Shown: positions 53,978-60,610 of the stretch, piece after piece
How the letters are laid out: the number at the start of each line of letters is the position of its first letter
Numbering within the stretch: position 1 is the first letter of the stretch
Assembly: GCF_011065895.1 (NCBI RefSeq)
Contig: NZ_JAALCR010000007.1
Coordinates: 1-64,000, forward strand
Length of the DNA stretch: 64,000 nt
Direction of reading: 5' to 3'
Source: Paludisphaera rhizosphaerae
Lineage (GTDB): Bacteria; Planctomycetota; Planctomycetia; Isosphaerales; Isosphaeraceae
Program-made: the position numbers and the translations under genes
Notes under the pieces: model-generated
Seen by the model: the letters and a program-made list of their open reading frames with translations, nothing else
Databases searched by the model: none
What the model was told of the DNA's origin: nothing

Positions 53978-56900
53978 TCAGAAGTCCTCGGGGTTGGATT
54001 CCTTGCTAGGCGTCTCGACGGGGTCGTCGAAGCTGGGGAACGCCGGCGGGGCGTCGCTCGAGTCGTCGAAGCTGGGGAACGGCGGCGGGCCGTCCTCGTC
54101 GAAGCGATGGGAGAAGCCGTTCGACTTGGCGACGGGCGGCTCGTCCGACGGTTCAGGCTCGGGCGGAGCCTCGGGCTCAAAAGGGGCGGGACGGCTCTCG
54201 AACTTCGCCTTGATTCCCGCGGCCCACTCGGGGTCCGGGATGCTGTAGGGGCGGAACTTCTCGACGCGGTTCTCTTCCTCGCTGTAGAAGAGCGCCCGGT
54301 TCTCGCCGAGCTTGCCGGCGGCCGGCGAGTCGATCACCGTGCTGGAGTCGTTGGCGCTCATCTGGAAGAGGACCCGCAGCTCGAACTCGCGGAGGGCGTT
54401 GCGGTCGAACATGCGGTTCATGTTGTTGACGCTGTCGATCCAGACGATCGTGTGGATGTTGTACGTCGGCCCGTCGCGGAGGATCTCGCCGAACTGCTTG
54501 CCCGGCGACGGCGCCTTCTCCTCGCCGAAGCTGCTGCCGCCGAAGCCGAAGTCGTCGTCGGCCTTCTTGAGGTCGCGGAACCGCTGGAGGTCGTAGATCA
54601 TCAGGTAGACGGGCGCCTGATTCTCGACGTCGTCGGTGTTGTTGCGGCGGCGATCCAGCTCGCGGGCGACCTGATTGATCGAGGTCGCCATGTTGCGCTG
54701 GGTGACGTTGGTCACGTTGTGCGGCAGCCACTCCTTGATCTGGCCGAGCTTGCCGGCGAGCCAGGAGTCGACGGGCGAGCCATCCAGCATGTAGAACTTG
54801 ATCCCCGTCCGCTGCTTGGGCGGGTGCTGGGCGGCGATCCCCACGGCCGCCATCATCATCATCGCCAGCGCGGCCTCGCCGTTCTGGCCGATGATGAGCA
54901 GGTTGGAGCCCGACTGGGGCCGGAAGACGGCGACGGTCGGGTCCTTGATGGCGATCGCGTCGCCGAGCCAGGCCTGCTCGTACCGGGGCGATTCGGCGGG
55001 CCACTCGGTCGCGTCCAGAAGCTTGTTGAGCAGCGGGTTCTTGTGGATGTCGGCCGGCAGGTTGCCTTCGAACACGATCGGCGTGGCGGCGGGCCGGTTC
55101 TGGGCCTTGGCCAGGTCGAGCATGTTCTGGAGGTACTCGACGCGGCGCTTGTCCGTGAGCCAGACGACCTGGAACAGGTTGTTGCCCTCGGGCATGCCGT
55201 TGGCGTCGTTGTAGATCGCCTCGCCGGGGCGGGTCAGCAGCCGGGCCGCGCTGTTGTCCTCGCTGAGGATCAGGTGGGCGTCGGCCTCGGAGCATTGCAG
55301 GGCGATGCGGATGGCCATCTGGCCGAGCGTCGCCCGGCCGACCGAGTAGGCGCCGCCGAGCGTCTGTGAGCCGAGGATGACGTGGACGCCGAAGGCACGA
55401 CCCTGGCGGACCAGACGGTCGAGGAGCAGCGAGACCTCCTGGGCGATCTTGTCGTCCTCGACGAAGAACTCCTGGAACTCGTCAACCACCAGCAGGATGC
55501 GCGGCATGACCATGTCGGGCTTCGCCTCGCGGAAGCCCTTCAGGTCCTGGGCGCCGTAGTCGCGGTACAGGTCGCCGCGATACTTCAGCTCAGCGTCCAG
55601 CCGCTGGAGCACGCTGAGGCCGAACTCGCGCTCGGACTCGACGGCGATGACCTTGGCGTGGGGCAGCTCCTTCTCGGCGTAGACCTTGAATTCAACGCCC
55701 TTCTTGAAGTCGATCAGGTACAGCTCAAGCTGGTCCGGGCCGTACCGCAGCGCCGCGTTGACGATCAGGGCGTGCAGCAGGGTCGACTTACCTGAACCCG
55801 TCTTGCCGGCGACCAGGGCGTGCTGCGAGGTTCCGCGTCCCAGCAGGAGCGGCTGGTACTTGGTGGCCCCGGCGCGGCCGAGGGGGACCTCCATGATCTT
55901 ACCGCTGTCCCAGGTCCAGAACTGCTCGGGCTTGGGGGCGATCCAGTCGAAGGGGACCTCGACCTTGTTGGCGTTCTTGGACGCCTCGCCCATGAAGTGC
56001 ATGAGCTTGCTGTAGTAGCCCGGATCGGGGATCGAGTCGAGCTGGAGCGGGAAGCGGCCGAAGTGGTCGTCGCGCCAGCCGAGCTTGCCGTCGCGCCAGC
56101 TCAGGTTGATGCAGTTCGATTCCAGGTCCTTAAGCTGGAGCCCGGCCGGCATCGAGAGCTTGGTGTCGACCGAGATCAACGCATACACGCCGCAGCGGGC
56201 GCCGCTGGAGACGATGCTCAGCAACCGTCGCGCGGCGGTCTCGTTGAAGTTCGACGGGAAGTTGGCGACCACGAGGATCCGGAACGGCTCGGCGACCTCG
56301 CCGGCGTGCTGGTTGTACTCCTCGATCGACTCGAACTCGTTGCGGAGGTACTTCTGGATGACGTTCTCCATGTGCGCGGAGAGGTCTTCCAACTGCTGGT
56401 CGAAGTCGCGGGCCTCGGTCCAGATCCGCTTGGTGACCAGCAGCTCCTGGTAGTCGGCCAGGTGCATGAAGGCGGCGAAGTTCTCGCCCAGACCGATGGG
56501 GTCGAAGATGGTGAACCGGACCTTGCCCGGCGGGATCGAGGTCAGGAACCGGAGCATCATGCTCTGGAGCAGTTTGTTGGCCTCGGCGCGGCCGGCTTCG
56601 CCGGTCTTGATCAGGACCGAGCTCTGGGTGGGGAACGGCAGGAACGCGGGGAAGTCGAACTCGGTCGGCCCGGCGTTCTTGAGGCGGTCGTCGGTGGGAC
56701 GGCCGTGGGGGAAGTCGGCCAGCTCGAACTTGAAGCGGCCGAAGGGCATGGCCGGCGGGACTTCCTCCGGGGGCTTCCAGCCGTCGATCTCTTCCTTGCC
56801 GTCCCATTCGAGGAACCGCCGGGCGGATTCCGAATTCACGTCGCTGTTGATCGCCCCGACGTGCGCCAGGCCGTCGGTCCAGCTCTTGATGAGGTCGGCC

Positions 56901-58162
56901 CAGGCGGTCTCGTAGGCGGTCTTGGTCGCCCCCTTCTCGGATTGGATCCGATCGGTCAGGGCCTTGGTCTCCTGCTCGTGCTTTTCCTTGCGGGCCTGGA
57001 TCTTGGGCGGGTAGTGGGAGTCCGCCTTCTTGAGGTCCTCGTCGCGCTTGGACTTGAGGCCGGCCAGCCGGGCGGGGTAGACGGAGTCGGCCTCTTCGAG
57101 GGCCTTCCGCATCTTCGTCTCGGCGTCGCCGACGCGGACCTTCATCTTGTCCTCGGCGAGCTTGTAGTTCTCCTCGCGCTTCTCGTCGGCCTGCTTCTGG
57201 CGGTCCTCGGTGTCGGTCTTGATCCAGTCCTTCGTCTCCTCGGCGAGGCGCACGCCTTCCTCAAGGTGGGCCTTGAGCGGGTGGTAGATCCCCGAGACGG
57301 CCGGCTCGGCCTTCTTCTTGAGCACCACGAAGGCGGCGGCGCCCGAGGCGATGGCCGCAATGACCCCCGCGACGGCCCCGATCACCGGGCCGAGGACGAA
57401 CGCCAGGCCGCCGCCGACCGCCGCGCCCAGGAAGAGCCAGGGCCAGATGAAGTTGGAGATCCGCAGGAAGTTGGGGAGCTTGAGCGTCTCCAGCCCGTGC
57501 AGCTCCTCGTCGATCTTGCGGATGACCTCCTGGAGCAGGTCGAGCTTGTTCGGCGGGCCCTTGGGCTCGGGGGGGGCCAGCAGCTCAGCGCCGTCGGCCT
57601 CCGGCGTCTCGGGGGCCTCGGGAGGGCGGACGTCGGTGGTGGGGGGAACCTCGAACGCCGGGCCGGCGAGCTTGGCGTTGCGGGCCAGGACGACCTCGGC
57701 GATGTCCCGCAGGTGCTCCAGGTCGCGGGAGGAGGCGGCCAGGCCCTCGTCCAGAACCTTGCGGCGCTTCACCGTGTTGTCGCGGGCGGCCTCGTACATG
57801 GCCAGCGACTGCCATCGGGATTCGTCGCTGGTCTTCTTGGCCTTGGCCCGCTCCGACTTGAACTGGGCCTCGATCTTCTGCTTGACCTGGCCGTATTCGG
57901 CCTCGACGGCCTGGGTGTCGGCCTGGGCCTTGCGGACGATGGCGGCCTTCACCTTGTCGTATTCGGCCTGGAGGGCCTCGCTCTCCGCCTTGTACCGCAC
58001 GGCCAGTTCTTGCTGCGCCTGGCGGTGCTCCTGGTCCTCGCGGTCGCGACGGCGCTTGAAGGTCTGCTCGATCTCGGTCTCGAGCTTGGCCCGGCGGGCG
58101 ATCAGCCCTTCCAGGTCGGTCAGCGCCTCGACTTCTTTCTGGATCAGCGGTGACTCGGGCAT
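53978..58162 (-). CDS. Membrane FtsK/SpoIIIE-family ATPase with three tandem ATPase modules (EccC/EssC-like)
   Basis: 1394 aa. Residues 1-230 are coiled coil (LIARRAKLETEIEQTFKRRR). Two membrane helices lie at about 235-281 (ISNFIWPWLFLGAAVGGGLA, IAAIASGAAAFVVLKK). A second coiled coil spans 300-430. Three RecA-like modules follow. Module 1 (about 470-730) has a degenerate P-loop near 511 (LIKTGEAGRAEA) and IPPGKVRFTIFDPIGLGENF. Module 2 (770-1000) is intact: Walker A AGKTGSGKST with Lys792, YLIDFKKGVEFK, Walker B ILLVVDEFQEFF (Asp894, Glu895) and VHVILGSQTLGG. Module 3 (1070-1340) has a degenerate P-loop near 1086 (LIIGQNGEAALAM). The Glu/Pro/Phe-rich tail repeats PPAFPSFDD. It shares the membrane-plus-three-ATPase plan of type VII secretion motors; downstream of small WXG100-like genes in one operon. 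Confidence 0.9.
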   Translation of the reverse strand: MPESPLIQKEVEALTDLEGLIARRAKLETEIEQTFKRRRDREDQEHRQAQQELAVRYKAESEALQAEYDKVKAAIVRKAQADTQAVEAEYGQVKQKIEAQFKSERAKAKKTSDESRWQSLAMYEAARDNTVKRRKVLDEGLAASSRDLEHLRDIAEVVLARNAKLAGPAFEVPPTTDVRPPEAPETPEADGAELLAPPEPKGPPNKLDLLQEVIRKIDEELHGLETLKLPNFLRISNFIWPWLFLGAAVGGGLAFVLGPVIGAVAGVIAAIASGAAAFVVLKKKAEPAVSGIYHPLKAHLEEGVRLAEETKDWIKTDTEDRQKQADEKREENYKLAEDKMKVRVGDAETKMRKALEEADSVYPARLAGLKSKRDEDLKKADSHYPPKIQARKEKHEQETKALTDRIQSEKGATKTAYETAWADLIKSWTDGLAHVGAINSDVNSESARRFLEWDGKEEIDGWKPPEEVPPAMPFGRFKFELADFPHGRPTDDRLKNAGPTEFDFPAFLPFPTQSSVLIKTGEAGRAEANKLLQSMMLRFLTSIPPGKVRFTIFDPIGLGENFAAFMHLADYQELLVTKRIWTEARDFDQQLEDLSAHMENVIQKYLRNEFESIEEYNQHAGEVAEPFRILVVANFPSNFNETAARRLLSIVSSGARCGVYALISVDTKLSMPAGLQLKDLESNCINLSWRDGKLGWRDDHFGRFPLQLDSIPDPGYYSKLMHFMGEASKNANKVEVPFDWIAPKPEQFWTWDSGKIMEVPLGRAGATKYQPLLLGRGTSQHALVAGKTGSGKSTLLHALIVNAALRYGPDQLELYLIDFKKGVEFKVYAEKELPHAKVIAVESEREFGLSVLQRLDAELKYRGDLYRDYGAQDLKGFREAKPDMVMPRILLVVDEFQEFFVEDDKIAQEVSLLLDRLVRQGRAFGVHVILGSQTLGGAYSVGRATLGQMAIRIALQCSEADAHLILSEDNSAARLLTRPGEAIYNDANGMPEGNNLFQVVWLTDKRRVEYLQNMLDLAKAQNRPAATPIVFEGNLPADIHKNPLLNKLLDATEWPAESPRYEQAWLGDAIAIKDPTVAVFRPQSGSNLLIIGQNGEAALAMMMMAAVGIAAQHPPKQRTGIKFYMLDGSPVDSWLAGKLGQIKEWLPHNVTNVTQRNMATSINQVARELDRRRNNTDDVENQAPVYLMIYDLQRFRDLKKADDDFGFGGSSFGEEKAPSPGKQFGEILRDGPTYNIHTIVWIDSVNNMNRMFDRNALREFELRVLFQMSANDSSTVIDSPAAGKLGENRALFYSEEENRVEKFRPYSIPDPEWAAGIKAKFESRPAPFEPEAPPEPEPSDEPPVAKSNGFSHRFDEDGPPPFPSFDDSSDAPPAFPSFDDPVETPSKESNPEDF

Positions 58163-58245
58163 GTTCGCGATTTCCGGGGTCAGGGGGCGGTGCGGGAGGG
58201 ATCAGGCAAGGCGGGAATCAGGTCGGACCTCGCGGCCGGGGCCGC

Positions 58246-58458
58246 TCAGTTCTCTTCCATCGCCTTGCGGATCTTGGCGAGCGACTCGGAGAGCTTGTCC
58301 ATGCCGACCATGGTCCTCTTCACCAGGCTGTCAACCGGCGCGATGTGGTTCTTCTCATAGTCCAGGGCGACCTGGTCGGCCCAGGAGTCCCTGGTGACGT
58401 CCCACTTCTCGCGGAGGTCTCTAAGGGCGTGCTGAAGGCGGGCGGAGTGGCTGCTCAT
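58246..58458 (-). CDS. Small helical WXG100-like protein, 70 aa
   Basis: MSSHSARLQHALRDLREKWD, then VTRDSWADQVALDYEKNHIA and a second helix SLVKRTMVGMDKLSESLAKI. The length and helix-turn-helix pattern with a W-x-x-x-x-x-W..D turn resemble WXG100 family secretion substrates, though the exact WXG is absent (WAD). It lies 83 bases upstream of the FtsK/SpoIIIE gene on the same strand. Likely a substrate or adaptor of that ATPase; alternatively an unrelated small coiled-coil protein. Confidence 0.7.
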   Translation of the reverse strand: MSSHSARLQHALRDLREKWDVTRDSWADQVALDYEKNHIAPVDSLVKRTMVGMDKLSESLAKIRKAMEEN

Positions 58459-58572
58459 GGTCGGACGCCTCCTCTTCTCTCTACTTAACTATTAGCGATC
58501 ATCGTGAGCGGTCGGGCGAAGCGTGCGGGCGAGATTCGATTCAACTCAACGATCGGCGGCGGCCTCGGCGGG

Positions 58573-59175
58573 CTAGGTTCCGGCCGGAGCCGCCGGGGCC
58601 CCGCCGGCGGGCGCGGCGGGGCCGGCGCTCGAGGTCACGCCGTCGGCCGAGCGGGCGGAGCTGCCGGCGGGGGCGTCGCGAGCGGTCGTCGGGGCCTGGA
58701 GCGCCAGATATTCTTCCAGGGAGCGGACCATCTTCTCCAGCGTCCCCAGCGACTTCTCGAAGCCGCCCGAGAGGTGGTCGCCCAGCGGCGAGGAGCACGA
58801 CTTGTAGTCGGCGATCTCGTGGTGCAGGAACGGGATCAGCTTCTTGACGAGCTGCACCTTCTCCTCGGCCACGCGGAGCTTCTGCATGGCGATGCGGACG
58901 GCCTCTTTCTGCTCGGTGTCGGAGATCGAGCTATTGCCCTTGGCGGCGATCTGCCGCTTGGCCAGCTCGGACCGGGCGTTCATGAGGGCTTCCTGCCGCC
59001 GCTTCACCTGCATCTGCCAGTAGCCGAGCTGGTCGCGCTCCAGCCAGTCGCGCATCCGGCGAAGCTCCATGTCGACCCCCGACAGCGCGCCGCGGGCCTC
59101 CTCGACGAACTGGATCATCGAGGCCTTGAAGTCCCTCAGGGCTTGGACCGACAGAACTCTCGCGTCCTGGCTCAT
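58573..59175 (-). CDS. Coiled-coil protein of the WXG100/FtsK operon
   Basis: 200 aa from ATG 59175 (MSQDARVLSVQALRDFKASM), the longer upstream frame being rejected since it crosses a repeat. Helical from 10 to 150 (VEEARGALSGVDMELRRMRD, WLERDQLGYWQMQVKRRQEA, RIAMQKLRVAEEKVQLVKKL, EKSLGTLEKMVRSLEEYLAL). The tail is Ala/Pro/Ser-rich. The head FKASMIQFVEEA..AL is like the LXG/WXG-type helical hairpins of type VII substrates. No signal peptide. Probably a secreted or chaperone-type partner of the ATPase; function unknown. Confidence 0.75.
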   Translation of the reverse strand: MSQDARVLSVQALRDFKASMIQFVEEARGALSGVDMELRRMRDWLERDQLGYWQMQVKRRQEALMNARSELAKRQIAAKGNSSISDTEQKEAVRIAMQKLRVAEEKVQLVKKLIPFLHHEIADYKSCSSPLGDHLSGGFEKSLGTLEKMVRSLEEYLALQAPTTARDAPAGSSARSADGVTSSAGPAAPAGGAPAAPAGT

Positions 59176-59231
59176 GGTGCTGGATCCTGCTCGGCTGGAC
59201 GGGACGGTGGACAAGGTCGAATTCGGGCGGC

Positions 59232-59325
59232 GGGTGGCATGGCCACACGAGCGTGGCCATGAACCGGCGTGGGACGACTGCTCGACCATCGCCGATCACA
59301 CGCCCACGACCAGCGTGGGCATGGC
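59232..59325. repeat. Second copy of the GTGGCC foldback repeat family
   Basis: Hairpin CATGGCCAC-ACGAGC-GTGGCCATG (59238-59261), a middle AACCGGCGTGGGACGACTGC similar to AACCGGCATGAGACAGTTGC of 6584-6666, then a hairpin GCCCACG-ACCAG-CGTGGGC (59302-59320). It lies between two genes of the WXG100/FtsK operon. Confidence 0.6.
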
Positions 59326-59371
59326 GTTCTTCAGCCGCAGGCGATGGTCGAGAAGTCTCGAATCCGGACGA

Positions 59372-59644
59372 TCAGCGCTGCTGGAGGTATTCCTCGAGCC
59401 GTTCCGCTTTGCGGAGCAAGAACGGGATGTGCTGATTGGTGACGTCGACGAACCGCTTGACGGTGGTGAGGGTCGAGTCGAACTCCTCCACGAACTTGGC
59501 GTGCTCGCGGTCGCGCCACGTCTGCCCCAGCGCGGAGACCTGTCCGTGGATGGCCGAGAGTTGGTTCAGGAGGTCGTTGTTGAACTGCTTCAACCGCGCG
59601 GCGAAGCGGCGGATCTCCTCGGGATTTGCAATGGCTTGGGCCAT
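59372..59644 (-). CDS. WXG100-family protein, first gene of the operon
   Basis: 90 aa from ATG 59644 (MAQAIANPEEIRRFAARLKQ). Two helices joined by a turn that carries the W-x-x motif: HGQVSALGQTWRDREHAKFV, then EEFDSTLTTVKRFVDVTNQH. WRD..E..F..EF matches the WXG100/ESAT-6-like pattern (W.G..A..F..F) except that the Gly is replaced. The length is the classic 90-100. No signal peptide, as expected for type VII substrates. Preceded by a sigma-70-like promoter at 59750-59777 and followed by the coiled-coil, the 70-aa and the FtsK/SpoIIIE genes. Confidence 0.8.
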   Translation of the reverse strand: MAQAIANPEEIRRFAARLKQFNNDLLNQLSAIHGQVSALGQTWRDREHAKFVEEFDSTLTTVKRFVDVTNQHIPFLLRKAERLEEYLQQR

Positions 59645-59749
59645 ACCGTGACCTCGTTTCGTTGCGGCCAGGGGTTCGTGGAGTTCGTCGGACGGGGGCC
59701 GACGACGCGGCGGAGCGCGTCGCGTCGCCTGAGATTTGTCGTCTCTTAT

Positions 59750-59777
59750 GGTATACGGGCTGTTACGAGCCTGTAAA
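59750..59777 (-). promoter_or_regulatory. Sigma-70-like promoter of the WXG100/FtsK operon
   Basis: On the minus strand TTTACA (-35), 16-nt spacer, TATACC (-10), giving a leader of about 100 bases before ATG 59644. It stands out in high-GC DNA. The 303-base gap 59645-59947 also holds the upstream region of the divergent lipoprotein; no other gene is seen there. Confidence 0.6.
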
Positions 59778-59947
59778 GCCTCGCCCCATCTCCGCGCCAC
59801 CCATCCATCACGGGCGATGCCGGGACGCGACGGGGTCCGCCGTCGCGTCCCTCCGAGAATCCCATCCCCGCCCCCGGGAATGTGATAGATTCCCGTAGAC
59901 GGATCGTCCGAACGGAGTCGATCCCCTCGACCATGGAGGTCCTCGTC

Positions 59948-60610
59948 GTGAAACGCCGCCTCATCGTCGCGGCCCTGCTAGCCGTCACATCCGGATGCTC
60001 GATGATCCGGCGGATCGACGACACGTTGCTGCAGCTGCGCACAGCCAACACGCTGCTCGCCGCGACCAACCAGCAGATCGCCGAGACCAACCAGAAGGTC
60101 GACGCCGCCAATCAGGCGATCCTGACCGCGAACGAGCAGGTCCGCGAGGCCAACCGGATCGTCGCCAAGGCCAACGAGCAGGTCCTCGCCGCCAACGAGA
60201 TCGTCGGCCGCGCCAACGTCCTGGTCGATCGGACCAACGGGACCGTCGAAAACTCCAACAAGCTCGTCGAGCGGACCAACGCCAACGTTGAGAACTCCAA
60301 CCGGCTGATCGTCCAGTCCAACGGCAACGTCGAGACTTCGAACAAACTGGTTCAGCAGACGATCACGAACGTCGAGACGTCCAACCGGCTCATCACCCAG
60401 ATGGGCGGCAACCTGGAGACGTCCAACAAGCTCGTCGAGCAGACCAACGCCACGGTCGGCAACTCGAACAAGCTCATCGAGCAGTCCAACACGCTGGTCG
60501 GCACGGCCAACGGCTCGATCGAACGCTCGACGAACACGGTCAGCGAGGCGGCCAAGAAGATGGACGTCATCGATCAGATCATGCGGAAGATCCCCGGTAT
60601 GAAGCCCTGA
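59948..60610 (+). CDS. Lipoprotein with a 14-residue Asn-rich coiled-coil repeat
   Basis: 220 aa. The GTG at 59948 is chosen because GGAGGT lies seven bases before it; an ATG 15 nt upstream is in frame but has no such site. Lipobox VTSGC follows a signal peptide. The rest is one long helix: LLAATNQQIAETNQKVDAAN, then a repeat of two heptads such as ENSNKLVERTNANV, ENSNRLIVQSNGNV, ETSNKLVQQTITNV, ETSNRLITQMGGNL, ETSNKLVEQTNATV, GNSNKLIEQSNTLV. Asn recurs at core positions between Leu/Val, as in trimeric asparagine-layer stalks. End KKMDVIDQIMRKIPGMKP. Divergent from the WXG100 operon. Likely a periplasm-spanning or surface stalk; function unknown. Confidence 0.85.
   Translation: MKRRLIVAALLAVTSGCSMIRRIDDTLLQLRTANTLLAATNQQIAETNQKVDAANQAILTANEQVREANRIVAKANEQVLAANEIVGRANVLVDRTNGTVENSNKLVERTNANVENSNRLIVQSNGNVETSNKLVQQTITNVETSNRLITQMGGNLETSNKLVEQTNATVGNSNKLIEQSNTLVGTANGSIERSTNTVSEAAKKMDVIDQIMRKIPGMKP

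What the first reader, a model, noticed from the sequence alone, without database searches (positions are those of the whole stretch)
53978..59644. Compact type VII-like secretion operon in a planctomycete
Seen: a 90-aa WXG100-like protein, a 200-aa coiled-coil protein, a 70-aa WXG-like protein and a 1394-aa membrane FtsK/SpoIIIE ATPase on one strand, with small gaps and one promoter. Known: WXG100 genes beside such ATPases mark type VII systems of Actinobacteria and Firmicutes. Inference: a reduced T7SS-like export system in a Gram-negative-type cell, without EccB/D/E, YukD or mycosin genes here, which would be new in design.
Basis: partly seen in the sequence, partly recalled or inferred. 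Interest (0 to 1): 0.8.

Follow-up and report, generated by a model that had tools for sequence, protein, structure and literature searches.

The report
Planctomycete type VII-like export operon
Four neighbouring genes encode a membrane motor protein and three small helical partners resembling a protein-export machine of Gram-positive bacteria; relatives of the cargo carrier elsewhere seem to bear DNA-cutting toxins, but here it has no such part, so planctomycetes may use the machine for housekeeping.

Summary
The four genes are real, on the minus strand, at the stated coordinates. The 90-aa protein is a WXG100 by Pfam's cut-off, with W-x-D in place of W-x-G. The 70-aa protein is a shortened relative. 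The ATPase has a predicted transmembrane hairpin and three FtsK-like domains, with an intact Walker A only in the middle one; over the whole region its best fold match is the type VII ATPase EccC. ATPase and WXG100 occur together in 114 of 393 Planctomycetota genomes and each alone in one, often unlinked.

The design is not new. This ATPase type with WXG proteins was noted for planctomycetes in 2012 (PMC3482391) and described in CoCoNuT defence islands in 2024 (PMC11090510).

Added here: the 200-aa coiled-coil protein is homologous to carriers whose C-terminal ends in Chloroflexota and other phyla look nuclease-like by eye (mostly no Pfam match). In the window's family 0 of 53 copies have a tail over 100 aa. 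The operon is chromosomal and, within the family, vertically inherited; a second, WXG100-free copy exists.

Best reading: a membrane-anchored, type VII-like export module in which two small hairpins escort a carrier. Export itself is untested.

The parts
59372..59644 (-). P1: WXG100 protein, 90 aa, W-x-D motif (WRD)
   Evidence: Pfam PF06013 35 bits, cut-off 27.3; W43 and D45 invariant in 28 of 28 aligned rows; closest solved sequence HP0062, E 1e-5
58573..59175 (-). P2: 200-aa coiled-coil protein; long two-helix hairpin (10-78, 87-160) plus low-complexity tail; homologous to cargo-carrier domains
   Evidence: AlphaFold2 mean pLDDT 87.4; profile comparison of its family with five carriers 99.8%, E 2e-27
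58246..58458 (-). P3: 70-aa shortened WXG-like hairpin with W-x-D
   Evidence: profile comparison of P1 and P3 families 87.7%, E 3e-6 over 37 columns; reversed control 0.8%; untrimmed alignments gave 2.7%
53978..58162 (-). ATPase, 1394 aa, EssC/EccC-like FtsK/HerA family
   Evidence: TIGR03928 102.6 bits, TIGR03924 98.7, TIGR03925 91.7, against FtsK PRK10263 20.6, all below curated cut-offs
57320..57448 (-). predicted transmembrane hairpin (residues 239-281) between two coiled-coil-like stretches
   Evidence: hydropathy scan; 84 of 86 planctomycete ATPases have one or two such segments before the motor
55958..56680 (-). ATPase domain 1 (residues 495-735), degenerate
   Evidence: no Walker A; profile match to domain 3 90.7%, but not to domain 2 (1.3%); alpha/beta fold in model
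55127..55930 (-). ATPase domain 2 (residues 745-1012), the only one with intact Walker A (GKTGSGKST) and B (VDEFQEFF)
   Evidence: conservation in 86 ATPases, 28 of them chosen partly by a Walker A pattern; profile match to EssC/EccC ATPase 1 99.3/99.2%
54227..54985 (-). ATPase domain 3 (residues 1060-1312), degenerate
   Evidence: profile match to domain 2 97.5%, no Walker A
59748..59777 (-). promoter-like site upstream of P1 (weak)
   Evidence: 9 of 12 matches; 1 found, 0.4 expected

Best explanation
Operon A encodes a membrane-anchored, type VII-like protein-export module of the EssC-like three-domain ATPase family, in a toxin-free planctomycete form that is vertically inherited within its family. 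Likely working: P1 and P3, two short W-x-D hairpins, bind the long helical hairpin of P2 and form an export complex. The ATPase, tethered by its transmembrane hairpin and driven by its middle domain, recognises this complex and moves P2 (with or without P1) across the inner membrane. The logic resembles Lap1-Lap2-LXG complexes of T7SSb. In other phyla P2 relatives have extra C-terminal domains, several of which look like nucleases, so the helical domain is probably the delivery part; in the window's family it ends in a flexible tail and may serve a structural or housekeeping role. Shown: gene content, homology, predicted folds of ATPase and P2, co-occurrence of P1 and ATPase. Inferred: complex formation, export, direction, and the role of P2.
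For: P1 is a WXG100. P3 is a related short hairpin. The ATPase region gives EccC as best Foldseek match, aligned across the three domains (E 1.7e-33), and T7SS ATPase chains fill the top eight rows. P1 and ATPase co-occur: 114 genomes with both, 1 ATPase only, 1 P1 only, 277 neither, of 393. By best ATPase match per genome, in 33 of the 114 the two are not within 6 kb, 10 of these on one contig. One P1 per genome in 115 of 115 at E 1e-6, with at most 13 candidates scored per genome. G022 (98% complete) lacks P1 and has an ATPase nearer type B (56% to L038, 40% to the window). P2 family vs five carriers with C-terminal domains: 99.8%, E 2e-27 over 166 columns; coiled-coil controls 0.3-0.6%. Carriers at the same position: Colicin-DNase 9e-21 and WHH 1.5e-15 in Campylobacter sp. 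US33a, WHH 1e-11 in Helicobacter sp. NHP19-012. 84 of 86 planctomycete ATPases have a hydrophobic segment or pair before the motor. Each genus with two or more sequences in the tree is monophyletic, 8 of 8 in type A and 6 of 6 in type B.
Against: No export has been measured. Operon B has no WXG100 of its own. The 14 Caballeronia- and Campylobacter-type ATPases of the genome scan and 5 of 5 from Chloroflexota show no transmembrane segment before the motor, so membrane export may not be a family-wide function. Window-type P2 against the proteobacterial carriers directly gives only 40% over 62 columns; the link runs through the five carriers (90.8%). The two carriers with a Pfam-confirmed nuclease (L129, L148) are not shown homologous to P2 (0.6% and 3.1%), only in the same position. 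The tree does not settle whether this clade is nearer T7SS ATPases or FtsK, and its tool flags long branches. FtsK motors give the highest Z for the middle domain (31.7, 270 residues, rmsd 2.3, against EssC 28.6 over 489 residues, rmsd 6.4). NCBIfam T7SS scores are far below curated cut-offs. No outer-membrane part is known.
Confidence: 0.6

Rival explanations
1. It is a conflict or defence cassette acting inside the cell, as proposed for CoCoNuT- and TerY-P-associated relatives, and not an exporter.
For: A relative on a Caballeronia plasmid sits between genes annotated vWA, DUF1887, PP2C, kinase and AAA; PMC11090510 and PMC4978471 place such cassettes in defence or stress islands; those ATPases lack transmembrane segments.
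Against: Ten neighbours in the window show no vWA, PP2C, kinase or McrBC domain and only weak partial PADLOC matches in 3 of 10. No long tail on P2 (0 of 53 over 100 aa in the family set), no PADLOC match for P1-P3, a transmembrane hairpin, and single-copy, genus-true inheritance.
Confidence: 0.18
2. It is a cytoplasmic or envelope scaffold (for example in division or membrane organisation) built from an FtsK-family motor and coiled coils, with no export.
For: P2 is a plain long helical hairpin whose fold matches are unspecific; long coiled-coil-like stretches flank the ATPase membrane hairpin (by eye); P2 and P3 persist without WXG100 in operon B.
Against: P1 tracks the ATPase across 393 genomes; multi-domain fold match to T7SS ATPases; P2 homologues carry diverse C-terminal domains, as delivered cargo does.
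Confidence: 0.16
3. It is a DNA translocase of FtsK type and the small proteins are DNA-segregation partners.
For: Middle-domain fold is nearest FtsK motors by Z.
Against: The genome has its own FtsK, which falls with SspH proteins (98/90, flagged as a long-branch join) outside this 25-row clade (100/98); the three tandem domains match T7SS ATPases.
Confidence: 0.05

Closest known systems
[quoted passage not shown] 2012, PMC3482391, table footnote; passages seen)
   Same: WXG protein plus three-domain ATPase with only the middle domain intact; planctomycetes are named.
   Different: They call these versions mobile. Here the operon is chromosomal, single-copy and vertically inherited in its family, and has P2, P3 and a membrane hairpin, which the passages seen do not mention.
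[quoted passage not shown] 2024, authors recalled; PMC11090510, passages seen)
   Same: Three-domain ATPase with N-terminal coiled coil, two WXG100-type proteins (one without the motif), one coiled-coil protein.
   Different: [quoted passage not shown] not so in the window.
H. pylori HP0062 / HP0066 (PMC3397514 passages; PMC4978471 section 17)
   Same: HP0062 is a WRD-motif helical hairpin dimer in a cluster with an FtsK/SpoIIIE-type gene, and the nearest solved sequence to P1.
   Different: Function not determined in the passages seen; HP0066 was not compared here.
T7SSa/T7SSb (EccC/EssC systems)
   Same: WXG100 plus EccC/EssC-type ATPase.
   Different: No EssB in the genome, ATPase in a separate clade, one intact Walker A only, W-x-D instead of W-x-G.
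Lap1-Lap2-LXG export complexes (PMC9600955; abstract and passages)
   Same: Long helical carrier domain with variable C-terminal domain plus two small WXG100-like hairpins.
   Different: No sequence link tested; the carrier in the window has no toxin.

Membership tests
Canonical T7SS (a or b) | WXG100 protein | tested here: met
   PF06013 above cut-off; TIGR03930 below its cut-off
Canonical T7SS (a or b) | ATPase inside the EccC/EssC clade, above family cut-off | tested here: not met
   102.6 bits against cut-off 778.4; separate 25-row clade
Canonical T7SS (a or b) | EssB/YukC membrane partner | tested here: not met
   none in genome at E 0.01; control rings in B. subtilis
Canonical T7SS (a or b) | EccB membrane partner | tested here: inconclusive
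   none found, but control rang nowhere
Canonical T7SS (a or b) | EccD, EccE, mycosin, EsaA, EssA | not tested
   no search made
Canonical T7SS (a or b) | YukD/EsaB in the locus | tested here: not met
   the one YukD match lies on another contig beside E2-, E1- and JAB-like genes
Canonical T7SS (a or b) | ATP-driven secretion of WXG proteins | not testable with these tools
   needs a secretome
EssC-like three-domain ATPase / WXG cassette (PMC3482391, PMC11090510) | three FtsK/HerA domains, only the middle one intact | tested here: met
EssC-like three-domain ATPase / WXG cassette (PMC3482391, PMC11090510) | WXG100 plus a second WXG-like protein | tested here: met
   P1 profile hits the Caballeronia WXG100 at 8.5e-24 in a small set
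EssC-like three-domain ATPase / WXG cassette (PMC3482391, PMC11090510) | coiled-coil protein fused to a nuclease | tested here: not met
   coiled coil present, linked to the nuclease carriers through intermediates; 0 of 53 family copies have a tail over 100 aa
CoCoNuT / TerY-P defence island | vWA, PP2C, kinase, McrBC-type neighbours | tested here: not met
   none among ten window neighbours by Pfam; other gene clusters recur in at most 4 of the 21 stretches compared (where the gene finder missed the ATPases of L055 and L057)
FtsK DNA translocase | groups with FtsK in a phylogeny | tested here: not met
   own FtsK falls outside the clade; one tree, long branches flagged
LXG/Lap targeting complex | homology of P2 to LXG, P1/P3 to Lap1/Lap2 | not tested
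   analogy from PMC9600955 only

The most novel reading that the evidence does not exclude
Planctomycetes, Verrucomicrobia and Chloroflexota hold a third lineage of type VII export, outside T7SSa and T7SSb-like systems, defined by W-x-D hairpins and a three-domain motor. In planctomycetes it is an ancient housekeeping secretion machine of a diderm cell with a toxin-free carrier, and the toxin-loaded plasmid and defence-island cassettes of Proteobacteria and Campylobacterota derive from it by losing the membrane anchor and gaining nucleases.
Probability: 0.25. Interest if true: 0.8.

Novelty: new variant of a known kind. Interest (0 to 1): 0.55.

Why it matters
T7SS is known mainly from Gram-positive bacteria and mycobacteria. 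A single-copy T7SS-like module inherited within planctomycete lineages, with a toxin-free relative of a toxin carrier, would show what the core machine does apart from warfare, and gives a small four-gene system in which WXG export can be tested. It also links separately described cassettes (H. pylori HP0062/HP0066, TerY-P and CoCoNuT extensions, plasmid toxin loci) into one family.

Tried and rejected
'New in design' was rejected after PMC3482391 and PMC11090510. A search for orphan carriers in the own genome found only the two operon copies and one chance match at E 0.95. The second WXG100-like match in the genome (C7:247313, 24.6 bits) is under the cut-off and was not followed. The P2 fold search was uninformative: no Foldseek match with E under 0.001, and VIA Z near 10.9 (rank 1: 127 aligned, rmsd 6.5) is in the range the tool gives for any long helices. 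The EccB search is void. PADLOC matches of the ATPase are mainly to its motor domain. No Rfam match in the window. A first P1-P3 profile comparison with untrimmed alignments gave 2.7%; trimmed to 90 and 68 conserved columns it gave 87.7%, so this link depends on trimming. Domain 1 matches EccC only weakly (12.4%). On print: searches of the held library listed no paper devoted to a planctomycete T7SS; subscription journals are mostly not held, and three of these ten searches had fewer listed than found.

Full report
What is there. P1 passes the Pfam WXG100 cut-off but not that of TIGR03930. The ATPase matches NCBIfam EssC, EccCa and EccCb at 102.6, 98.7 and 91.7 bits and FtsK at 20.6, all below the curated cut-offs. 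P2 and P3 have no Pfam match. Ten neighbouring window genes include an aldehyde dehydrogenase, a dihydrouridine synthase, a THUMP-like protein, a histidine phosphatase and an HTH protein, and none with a vWA, PP2C, kinase or McrBC domain.

Own genome and family. The genome has a paralogous operon (C23) whose ATPase is 44% identical, with P2 and P3 but no WXG100, and a separate FtsK. The ATPase is in 45 of 45 genomes of the family, weakest best E 4e-101. Of 59 ATPase loci read in the family, 34 have all four genes (in L076 and L082 P1-P2 lie on the other strand), 19 have P2-P3-ATPase without P1, 2 are cut at contig ends and 4 (one genus) have the ATPase alone; all four of those genomes have P1 elsewhere. 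P1 is in 41 of 45 family genomes; the four without are G013, G035, G036 (81, 64 and 77% complete) and G022 (98%). Type B ATPases form one clade (20 of 20, support 1.0); type A is not resolved as a clade (0.298). Each genus with two or more sequences is monophyletic in both types (8 of 8, 6 of 6, a FastTree of 62 sequences over 1200 aa).

Phylum. At E 1e-20 the ATPase is in 115 of 393 Planctomycetota genomes, and P1 at E 1e-6 in 115 of 393, one match each, at most 13 candidates scored per genome. Both: 114; ATPase only: G022; P1 only: G351; neither: 277; Fisher p 5e-98, which ignores shared ancestry. By the best ATPase match, in 81 of 114 the two lie within 6 kb, in 10 they are farther apart on one contig and in 23 on different contigs. 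G351 has no ATPase of this family even at E 0.001, only a 7e-12 match over 202 residues.

Parts. All 28 aligned P1 rows have W-x-D, not W-x-G. The nearest solved sequences are H. pylori HP0062 (E 1e-5), then EsxB; HP0062 is described as a WRD hairpin dimer (PMC3397514, passages). PMC3935865 (passages) picked WXG100 candidates by a W-X-G pattern and found them almost only in Actinobacteria and Firmicutes; such a screen would miss W-x-D proteins (inference). P3 aligns with P1 around the W-x-D turn (87.7%, E 3e-6; reversed control 0.8%), but not with untrimmed alignments (2.7%). P2 is predicted as two long helices, 10-78 and 87-160, with a flexible tail. The ATPase region is predicted with three alpha/beta domains, pLDDT 89; Walker motifs are intact only in the middle one across 86 planctomycete ATPases (shorter ORFs were dropped, and the 28 rows from outside the family search were chosen partly by a Walker A pattern). 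Foldseek ranks EccC first over the whole region (E 1.7e-33); VIA-align ranks FtsK motors first for the middle domain (Z 31.7, 270 aligned, rmsd 2.3) and gives EccC Z 27.1 with 737 aligned, rmsd 14.1. In the tree, 25 rows of this family, window included, form one clade (100/98) apart from EssC/EccC and from the own FtsK with SspH (98/90); its nearest kin is unresolved and long branches are flagged.

Wider family. P1 profile matches occur in 62 of the 80 loci and P2 matches in 52; several loci are cut short. Plasmid relatives exist in Caballeronia, two Rhodococcus, Deinococcus and Helicobacter. P2 homologues with long C-terminal ends occur in L150, L152, L180 (Chloroflexota), L190, L195 and several Phycisphaerae and other Planctomycetota. 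By eye the non-planctomycete ends look ParB-like, restriction-endonuclease-like and HNH-like; Pfam does not confirm them (best, ParB_N 0.083 in L190). Pfam confirms Imm33-like ends over the cut-off in L169, L171, L197 and L207; L196 and L200 fall below it and L203 has none. Pfam confirms Colicin-DNase and WHH ends in the carriers at the same position of L148 and L129, whose helical parts are not shown homologous to P2. Window-type P2 against five carriers: 99.8%, E 2e-27; those carriers against 11 proteobacterial carriers: 90.8%; window-type P2 against these directly: 40%; coiled-coil controls 0.3-0.6%. A profile with the carriers added also finds the carrier of L160, a planctomycete locus of the Caballeronia type. 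Tails over 100 aa: 0 of 53 in the family set, 13 of 53 in the genome scan set.

Membrane anchor. 84 of 86 planctomycete ATPases have one or two hydrophobic segments before the motor. By the same scan none is seen before the motor in 14 of 14 Caballeronia- and Campylobacter-type ATPases (L134-L146, L148; L141 is cut at its start) and in 5 of 5 from Chloroflexota. The betaproteobacterial L190 and the Electronema L195, of the planctomycete-like branch, have one and two; some Planctomycetota and Verrucomicrobiota of the scan show none (for example L156, L165, L189, L199). The scan is a simple hydropathy threshold.

Reading. The gene set matches a known but little-studied cassette (PMC3482391 footnote, passages; PMC11090510, passages; PMC4978471, section 17 read). 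The window form differs by its membrane hairpin, its tail-only carrier and its stable single-copy descent. The most likely mechanism is export of P2 in complex with P1 and P3, by analogy with LXG-Lap1-Lap2 (PMC9600955, abstract and passages). None of the biochemical steps is shown.

Noticed in passing
L215:9447-13144 (own genome, contig C21): Ubiquitin-like (YukD family by Pfam), E2-like, E1/ThiF-like and JAB-like genes in a row: a bacterial ubiquitin-like conjugation cluster (the last three named by eye).
   Followed up: partly
window 59882-60610 (+): Divergent gene for a lipoprotein-like protein (Cys after a hydrophobic start) with repeated Asn-rich stretches.
   Followed up: no
L150:2353-6412: In an Anaerolineae locus two coiled-coil proteins with a hydrophobic segment and WD40-like repeats (by eye) lie between P3 and a hairpin-free ATPase; they may supply the membrane anchor.
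   Followed up: no
L169, L171, L197, L207 (P2 genes): These planctomycete P2 proteins end in an Imm33-like domain, an immunity-type fold on the carrier itself.
   Followed up: partly
L044:8734-12917: In congener G031 the ATPase is split into two overlapping ORFs (339 and 1055 aa), separating coiled coil from motor.
   Followed up: no
own genome C23, L038:7338-12155: Paralogous P2-P3-ATPase operon without WXG100 (P2 210 aa, P3 79 aa). Whether it borrows P1 is unknown; G022 has an ATPase nearer this type and no P1.
   Followed up: partly
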